NCBI RefSeq assembly: GCF_003260265.1
Contig: NZ_QITQ01000001.1
Span: 186,001 to 250,000, forward strand
Direction: 5' to 3'
Origin: Roseovarius amoyensis
GTDB lineage: Bacteria > Pseudomonadota > Alphaproteobacteria > Rhodobacterales > Rhodobacteraceae
DNA: 64,000 nt
Part shown: positions 61,496 through 62,311 of the stretch, piece by piece
How the letters are laid out: each line of letters opens with the position of its first letter
Numbering within the stretch: the stretch's first letter is position 1
Notes under the pieces: generated by a model
Told to the model about the DNA's origin: nothing
The model's database searches: none
The model's input: only the letters and a program-made list of their open reading frames with translations
Program-made: the position numbers and the translations under genes

Positions 61496-62182
61496 ATGGC
61501 ACAGTTGAAAAAGATCCTGCTGGTGGACGACGACGCCGACCTGCGCGAGGCGCTGGGCGAACAACTGCTGATGACCGAGGATTTCGACGTGTTCGAGGCC
61601 GGCACCGGCGCCGAGGCCACGACGCGGATCAAGGACACGATATTCGACCTGGTGATTCTCGATGTCGGCCTGCCCGATACCGATGGGCGCGAACTGTGCC
61701 GGCTGATGCGCAAGCAGGGCGTCAAGGCGCCGATCCTGATGCTGACGGGCCATGACGGCGATGCCGACACCATCCTGGGGCTGGATGCGGGCGCCAACGA
61801 CTATGTCTCGAAACCGTTCAAGTTCCCGGTCCTGCTGGCCCGCATCCGCGCGCAGCTGCGCCAGCACGAACAATCAGAGGACGCGGTATTCCAGCTTGGG
61901 CCCTATACCTTCAAGCCGTCGATGAAGATGCTGATCACCGAGGACGACCGCAAGATCCGGCTGACCGAGAAGGAAACCAACATCCTGAAATTCCTCTACC
62001 GCTCGACCGAGGGCGTGGTCGCCCGCGACACACTGCTGCATGAGGTCTGGGGCTATAACGCCGGCGTGACCACCCACACGCTGGAGACGCATATCTATCG
62101 ACTGCGCCAGAAAATCGAGCCCGACCCGTCGAATGCCCGCCTGCTGGTGACCGAAACCGGCGGCTATCGCCTGCTGGCCTGA
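61496..62182 (+). CDS. cenR: OmpR-type response regulator, CenR-like
   Basis: A 228-residue response regulator. The receiver domain has acidic pair DDDAD near residue 11, phospho-acceptor Asp in LVILDVGLPDTDG near residue 55, and Lys in YVSKPFKFP near residue 106. The C-terminal winged helix (about 130-228) ends LLVTETGGYRLLA. The close match to CenR, an essential envelope regulator in Caulobacter and Rhodobacter, is from memory. No histidine kinase is adjacent, which agrees with a separately encoded CenK. The ATG at 61496 follows GAGGA. Confidence 0.85.
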   Translation: MAQLKKILLVDDDADLREALGEQLLMTEDFDVFEAGTGAEATTRIKDTIFDLVILDVGLPDTDGRELCRLMRKQGVKAPILMLTGHDGDADTILGLDAGANDYVSKPFKFPVLLARIRAQLRQHEQSEDAVFQLGPYTFKPSMKMLITEDDRKIRLTEKETNILKFLYRSTEGVVARDTLLHEVWGYNAGVTTHTLETHIYRLRQKIEPDPSNARLLVTETGGYRLLA

Positions 62183-62188
62183 TTGGGG

Positions 62189-62202
62189 TTGATCGAAATC
62201 AA
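62189..62202 (+). promoter_or_regulatory. Perfect FNR/FnrL box after cenR
   Basis: TTGATCGAAATCAA is an exact match to TTGAT-N4-ATCAA and lies 7 bp after the cenR stop. TGAAAT at 62225-62230 is at the right distance to be the -10 of a class II FNR-activated promoter. The predicted start would then be near 62237. Confidence 0.7.
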
Positions 62203-62236
62203 GGGCATTTCTCACATTCTCTGTTGAAATCACCAC

Positions 62237-62311
62237 ATTCCCGACACATGTGCGGGTTATCACATGTACCTCCCTGTTGGACTGGCCCTGGCTTTGCCGG
62301 GGCCTTTTTTT
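62237..62311 (+). ncRNA. Candidate FNR-activated small RNA of about 75 nt
   Basis: The predicted transcript starts about 41 bp after the centre of the FNR box at 62189 and ends at a strong terminator. It contains a small hairpin (CCCG...CGGG at about 62240-62256), two copies of CACATGT, and a probably unpaired ACCTCCCTG stretch that could pair with ribosome-binding sites. There is no open frame with a ribosome site. The start is inferred; only the box and terminator are directly seen. It could also be just the 3' untranslated region of cenR. Confidence 0.5.
62284..62311 (+). terminator. Rho-independent terminator
   Basis: GGCCCTGGC (62284-62292) and GCCGGGGCC (62296-62304) form a 9-bp stem with one G-U pair and a TTT loop, followed by seven T. 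It ends the candidate small RNA and any cenR read-through. Confidence 0.92.

What the first reader, a model, noticed from the sequence alone, without database searches (positions are those of the whole stretch)
62189..62311. Predicted FNR-controlled small RNA downstream of cenR
A perfect FNR palindrome TTGATCGAAATCAA lies 7 bp after the cenR stop. TGAAAT at 62225-62230 is placed like the -10 of a class II FNR promoter, and a near-perfect terminator with seven T ends at 62311. No gene fits between, so an oxygen-regulated RNA of about 75 nt is the natural reading. It has a CCTCCC stretch between two stems, able to pair with ribosome sites, reminiscent of the role of FnrS in E. coli. I know of no description of such an RNA beside cenR.
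Basis: partly seen in the sequence, partly recalled or inferred. Interest (0 to 1): 0.75.

Follow-up and report, generated by a model that had tools for sequence, protein, structure and literature searches.

The report
SorX small RNA with FNR promoter
The spot holds SorX, an already known bacterial stress RNA cut from the tail of the cenR message; many relatives carry, just before it, what looks like an oxygen-sensing switch of its own, which may let cells also make the RNA when oxygen runs out.

Summary
In detail: a perfect FNR box lies 6 bases after the cenR stop, a -10-like TGAAAT sits at class II spacing, and a terminator with seven T ends at 62311. The RNA is not new: 62239-62309 is SorX (Rfam RF02784, 71.9 bits), published in R. 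[quoted passage not shown] FnrL binding at its putative promoter (as RSs2461) is published ChIP-seq, with the FnrS comparison (PMC4263372). Added here: the box is strongly enriched at one place before SorX across Rhodobacterales (35 of 56 loci, against 0-1 of 56 in five slid windows; 61 of 292 genomes by exact pattern, backward control none). Anchored on the box, a -10 (TA in 46 of 68) and an A at +1 (39 of 68) appear at class II distances, and the box spacer matches FnrL ChIP sites. So SorX probably has two sources: processed cenR mRNA under stress, and an FnrL-driven primary transcript of mature length. Weak points: the window's -10 lacks the usual A at -11; the box is patchy; R. sphaeroides' published 5' ends do not match; no RNA was measured.

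The parts
61496..62182 (+). cenR, OmpR-type response regulator (orthologue of R. sphaeroides RSP_0847), parent mRNA of SorX
   Evidence: ORF; Response_reg and Trans_reg_C domains; cenR in the fetched relatives 78-97% identical; RSP_0847 named cenR in PMC9275681
62189..62202 (+). perfect FNR/FnrL box TTGATCGAAATCAA, centre at -41.5 of the predicted start
   Evidence: enriched at this place in relatives; spacer letters of the boxed loci match FnrL ChIP sites
62225..62230 (+). -10-like hexamer TGAAAT (lacks the A at -11 common in relatives)
62237..62311 (+). predicted FnrL-driven primary transcript, 75 nt, starting at A 62237
   Evidence: inferred from class II geometry; A at this column in 39 of 68 distinct boxed loci
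62239..62309 (+). SorX sRNA (RF02784, full model 1-73)
   Evidence: 71.9 bits, gathering 46.6, E 1.2e-15
62246..62267 (+). first hairpin of SorX (ACATGTG ... CACATGT)
   Evidence: same hairpin in the SorX model (alignments of relatives)
62268..62276 (+). ACCTCCCTG, anti-Shine-Dalgarno-like stretch, unpaired in the SorX model
   Evidence: CCTCCC present in 73 of the 75 boxed loci listed
62284..62311 (+). intrinsic terminator (stem 62284-62304, T7 62305-62311)

Best explanation
The RNA is SorX. It has two sources. Under oxidative and other stresses it is cut from the 3' end of the RpoHI/RpoHII-driven cenR mRNA, last by RNase E (shown by others in R. sphaeroides; here inferred from synteny). When oxygen is low, FnrL binds 62189-62202 and acts as a class II activator of sigma-70 polymerase at a -10 at 62225-62230, so a primary transcript starts at about 62237 and ends at the shared terminator, giving mature-length SorX without processing (inferred). 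The free ACCUCCCUGUUGGAC then pairs with ribosome-binding regions such as that of potA and blocks translation (potA shown by others in R. sphaeroides; inferred here).
For: SorX match; SorX-family matches in 291 of 292 order and 84 of 84 genus genomes. Of the 6 perfect boxes of this genome, the other five lie before ccoN, OmpW-family, octahaem cytochrome, DksA-like (or a divergent metallo-hydrolase) and ArsR-family genes. Box (>=8 of 10) in 35 of 56 cenR-fetched loci at -106..-70 before CCTCCCTG, 0-1 of 56 in five slid windows; 29 of 79 loci with >=9 of 10 in the first 160 nt, against 0-2 for 19 permuted palindromes and at most 2 in 100 shuffles. Exact box-to-SorX pattern in 61 of 292 genomes, 26 of 112 genera, backward control 0. 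-10 at offset 36: TA in 46 of 68, TANNNT in 27 of 68; other offsets 16-69 at most 18 and 13; spacer score 1.75 against 1.78 for FnrL ChIP sites, shuffled maximum -0.96. Published FnrL ChIP-seq site at the RSs2461 promoter.
Against: The window's -10 lacks the A at -11 held by 58 of 68 boxed loci. 44 of 79 cenR-fetched loci have no box at the expected place (10 have too short a 3' UTR, 13 no CCTCCCTG within 160 nt), and the label changes at least 15 times on a weakly supported cenR tree. In R. sphaeroides the only candidate is a weak TTGCGTGAGATCAA with TATAAA at the right place; its predicted start (2,598,196) is 14 nt from the published pre-SorX 5' end (2,598,182), and a same-genus genome (L097) has no box. 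The window box scores near the low end of ChIP sites (15.7; range 14.5-22.8). No expression data.
Confidence: 0.72

Rival explanations
1. SorX here is made only by processing of the cenR mRNA, as published; the box and -10 are a decayed or chance remnant in this species.
For: Published biogenesis in R. sphaeroides; CCTCCCTG kept in loci without a box, among them 10 whose 3' UTR is too short for one (0 of 10); the window's -10 lacks the A at -11.
Against: Perfect box, one of 6 in 3.8 Mb; 25 of 27 scored genus loci have a box at the place (29 fetched as best SorX matches, 2 without CCTCCCTG not scored); the relative with the most similar CenR listed, L136, has box and TATAAT.
Confidence: 0.2
2. 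The palindrome is a conserved RNA hairpin in the cenR 3' UTR (processing or stability), not a protein site.
For: The stretch can fold as a 5-pair stem with a 4-nt loop; the outer four pairs form in 63-67 of 68 boxed loci, as they would for a DNA palindrome too.
Against: The innermost pair forms in only 24 of 68, G-U included; the commonest combination, C-A (29), cannot pair. The fold of 62183-62236 is no better than shuffles (z 0.6). The loop letters follow FnrL sites.
Confidence: 0.04
3. The box is used by another Crp/Fnr regulator (Dnr/NnrR type, CrpK) or as a repressor site.
For: Such paralogues share the half-site (recalled); many genomes have several FnrL-like matches. The link of box and FnrL presence is only weak: 0 of 14 genomes without a close FnrL match (none, or E weaker than 1e-49) hold the pattern, against 61 of 278 (one-sided Fisher p 0.035; 0.042 with 58; not corrected for kinship, 4 of the 14 are one genus).
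Against: Spacer preference like FnrL ChIP sites and class II position with a -10, which fits activation; ChIP-seq names FnrL.
Confidence: 0.12

Closest known systems
SorX (RSs2461, RF02784) of Rhodobacter sphaeroides
   Same: Sequence model, hairpin plus terminator, free ACCUCCCUGUUGGA, place after cenR
   Different: Here a perfect FNR box stands at -41.5 of the mature 5' end; R. sphaeroides has a weak box overlapping the cenR stop, and 29 nt more between box and CCTCCCTG (109 against 80)
FnrS of E. coli
   Same: Works alike if FNR-activated: FNR-driven sRNA acting without oxygen (comparison already made in PMC4263372)
   Different: That paper states no sequence similarity; SorX lies inside a 3' UTR and has a second, stress-linked source
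SorY (RF02651)
   Same: Shares UACCUCCCUGUUGGACUU and the terminator type
   Different: Different first stem and locus; in this genome beside a gene that reads as a LysR-type regulator (L112), no FNR box seen by eye just before it
PcrZ and Pos19 of R. sphaeroides
   Same: sRNAs linked to FnrL control (PcrZ) or binding (RSs0019 = Pos19)
   Different: Other loci; PcrZ acts on photosynthesis genes, Pos19 is RpoE-dependent

Membership tests
SorX (RF02784) | Covariance model score above gathering (46.6 bits) | tested here: met
   71.9 bits, whole model
[quoted passage not shown]
   starts 57 nt after the cenR stop
SorX (RF02784) | RNase E processing to about 75 nt | not testable with these tools
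   Published for R. sphaeroides
SorX (RF02784) | Pairs with and represses potA | tested here: inconclusive
   10-bp pairing at the start of the best own potA-family gene, rank 3 of 121 mechanical ORF starts; in G094 the strongest of 53 ORF starts is a potA-like one (L235), from loci mostly fetched for potA. In 13 of 30 genus loci that could be scored the median is -14.6 kcal/mol against background -10.2, but scrambled SorX medians (mean -12.3) reach -18.1. Which of them is the published potA was not settled; the own gene scores higher for PotG, under that model's cut-off
FNR class II-activated promoter | Box TTGATN4ATCAA | tested here: met
   perfect
FNR class II-activated promoter | -10 hexamer at class II spacing | tested here: inconclusive
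   Clear over the boxed loci (46 of 68 TA at -12/-11); the window has TGAAAT
FNR class II-activated promoter | FNR-dependent anoxic transcription | not testable with these tools
   none; ChIP binding only, in R. sphaeroides
FnrS | Homology to FnrS | not tested
   The whole-window Rfam scan gave SorX alone over gathering; PMC4263372 states no sequence similarity; works-like only

The most novel reading that the evidence does not exclude
SorX is a two-input sRNA: many Rhodobacterales keep a dedicated FnrL class II promoter inside the cenR 3' UTR whose primary transcript has the length of the processed RNA, so one RNA reports both oxidative stress (by mRNA cleavage) and lack of oxygen (by its own promoter), an FnrS-like anoxic arm not credited to SorX in the review passages seen, with lineages switching repeatedly between one and two sources.
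Probability: 0.6. Interest if true: 0.6.

Novelty: new member of a known kind. Interest (0 to 1): 0.45.

Why it matters
SorX is filed as a type II 3' UTR-derived sRNA (PMC7821165, passages), that is, one made by processing. A widespread FnrL promoter would make it a dual-source RNA and tie polyamine uptake and other targets to oxygen loss as well as oxidative stress. It gives an exact, testable start site in many species.

Tried and rejected
New RNA family: rejected, Rfam SorX. RNA hairpin reading of the palindrome: disfavoured. potA pairing as proof of conserved function: inconclusive, scrambled controls overlap; 17 of the 30 potA loci were dropped because the script found no ATG start. Shine-Dalgarno target scan CAGGGAGGN{4,10}ATG: 19 hits in the own genome (one of them SorY read backwards) against 3 for the backward pattern, but such sites are ribosome sites anyway; two or three are shared with a relative (a LivH/UrtB-like permease and a TolQ/ExbB-like protein, both under the curated cut-offs, and one protein with no NCBIfam match); not used. 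FnrL presence against box: only weak support, counted by eye from the tables, kinship not corrected. Three of the 61 genomes match away from the SorX site (G080 by its sequence; G098 and G187 by coordinates); the other 58 were not all checked one by one. At the looser cut of 8 of 10 the permuted palindromes reach 9 of 79 against 36, so single 8-of-10 boxes are less sure. No plasmid match. Literature on FnrL and SorX: of the held open-access library; only PMC4263372 was seen to link them, under the older name RSs2461. The SorX paper (Peng 2016) is not held and was seen only through other papers; supplements could not be read. That SorX and RSs2461 are one RNA rests on both being the processed RNA of RSP_0847 and on recall of the renaming.

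Full report
What is there. cenR ends at 62182. A perfect FNR box is at 62189-62202, a -10-like TGAAAT at 62225-62230, and a terminator with seven T ends at 62311. Only 6 perfect boxes exist in the 3.8 Mb genome, and the backward pattern gives none. The other five stand before ccoN (NCBIfam equivalog, over cut-off), an OmpW-family gene, an octahaem tetrathionate-reductase-family cytochrome (over cut-off), a DksA-like gene (or, on the other side, a metallo-hydrolase) and an ArsR-family gene (the OmpW box also faces a carboxyl-transferase gene). ccoNOQP, ompW and dksA are FnrL targets in R. sphaeroides (table in PMC2908626, section 11 read).

The RNA is known. cmscan of the whole window gives one match over gathering: SorX, 62239-62309, 71.9 bits. 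The family has matches in 291 of 292 genomes of the order (247 over the cut-off) and 84 of 84 of the genus (80 over the cut-off); some of these counts include SorY-type matches, since a second hit of this genome (L112, 48.4 bits) fits SorY better (57.1 bits, below SorY's own gathering score of 111). [quoted passage not shown] RSs2461 is a processing product co-transcribed with RSP_0847 from an RpoHI/II promoter (PMC3320616, passages). RSP_0847 is cenR (PMC9275681, passages; its main text holds none of the words SorX, RSs2461 or sRNA).

FnrL binding is known too. PMC4263372 (passages) reports FnrL ChIP-seq sites in the putative promoter regions of RSs0019 and RSs2461, compares them with FnrS, and says the effect could not be established. 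[quoted passage not shown] In the held library the term searches showed no other paper linking FnrL with SorX, though most hits were seen only as listings.

Conservation of the box. 79 cenR loci were used that had been fetched by CenR similarity alone (the 80 best of 591 were kept, one too short was dropped). In the first 160 nt after the stop, 29 of 79 hold a box with at least 9 of 10 letters; the 19 permuted palindromes give 0-2, and 100 shuffles a mean of 0.33 and at most 2; at 8 of 10 it is 36 against at most 9. Measured from CCTCCCTG, 35 of 56 loci with a long enough 3' UTR have a box (at least 8 of 10) 70-106 bases before it; five slid windows give 0, 0, 1, 0 and 1 of 56. 10 loci have a 3' UTR too short for a box, and none has one in that place; 13 had no CCTCCCTG within 160 nt. 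The 35 fall in 14 named genera (29 loci) and 6 loci without a genus, of 35 named genera seen. In the genus of the window 25 of 27 scored loci have it (29 fetched, chosen as best SorX matches). By exact pattern 61 of 292 genomes in 26 of 112 genera match, backward control none; 231 do not. On a cenR DNA tree, mostly weakly supported, the label (37 of 80) changes 15 times, against 26.7 for shuffles: clustered yet patchy; the tree cannot tell gain from loss.

Promoter geometry. 75 of 137 loci (the own-genome copies and L109 left out, the window counted) have a box of at least 8 of 10 in the first 120 nt; 68 are distinct. Anchored on the box, T, A and T at offsets 36, 37 and 41 occur in 53, 58 and 38 of 68, and A at offset 48 in 39 of 68. 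These are -12, -11, -7 and +1 of a class II FNR promoter (recalled geometry). TANNNT is at offset 36 in 27 of 68; the next best offset has 13. The four spacer letters score like FnrL ChIP-chip sites (1.75 against 1.78; shuffled mean -2.04, maximum -0.96 of 1000). The innermost palindrome pair could form in RNA in only 24 of 68, so selection more likely acts on the DNA site than on a hairpin.

The window itself. Its box is perfect, but scores 15.7 on the ChIP matrix (ChIP sites 14.5-22.8), and its -10 lacks the A at -11. The relative with the most similar CenR listed (L136, 96.9%) has box and TATAAT. Two other genus loci, L137 and L140, have no box by this test. I therefore rate the FnrL promoter as likely, not certain, in this species.

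R. sphaeroides. G094 has PuhA identical to the recalled R. sphaeroides protein, and its SorX lies at the published 2.4.1 coordinate. There a weaker box, TTGCGTGAGATCAA, overlaps the cenR stop, with TATAAA and an A at the class II distances (positions counted from its output); predicted start 2,598,196. The same half-site variant TTGCG...ATCAA stands before hemN in the ChIP-chip table. The published 5' ends (2,598,182 and 2,598,224) do not match that start, and another genome of its genus code (L097) has no box. So the promoter may be weak, or unused, in the model species.

Function. The stretch ACCUCCCUGUUGGAC is near-invariant in the loci listed. In the own genome the best potA-family gene has a 10-bp match just before its start (rank 3 of 121 mechanical ORF starts), and in G094 the strongest of 53 ORF starts belongs to a potA-like gene, but across the genus the signal does not beat scrambled controls. 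Target control under anoxia is inference.

Noticed in passing
L171 (G187:C22:400744) and L172 (G098:C1:461414): An FNR box with a -10-like TAGACA (seen in L171) at class II spacing before a different stretch that also holds ACCTCCCTG and ends in a terminator-like hairpin and T run; in L171 no SorX match, best Rfam hit below gathering. A second possible FNR-driven anti-Shine-Dalgarno sRNA, in two genomes of one genus code.
   Followed up: partly
L158 (G192), and G093:C3:706678-706922: Two SorX copies on one strand within 600 bases; in both genomes the FNR-box pattern is found before one copy.
   Followed up: partly
L112:1501-1585: SorY-like RNA beside a gene that reads as a LysR-type regulator in the window's own genome; shares the UACCUCCCUGUUGGACUU core with SorX.
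   Followed up: partly
L109:1432-1500 (G094:C4:2598156-2598224): R. sphaeroides has 29 nt more than the window between box and CCTCCCTG, with a GC-rich hairpin-like GGCGGGCTCGCCCGC.
   Followed up: no
L223 (G000:C44:63632): A CAGGGAGG ribosome-site-like stretch complementary to SorX before a gene that reads as ornithine-cyclodeaminase-like, lying between two potA-family genes.
   Followed up: no
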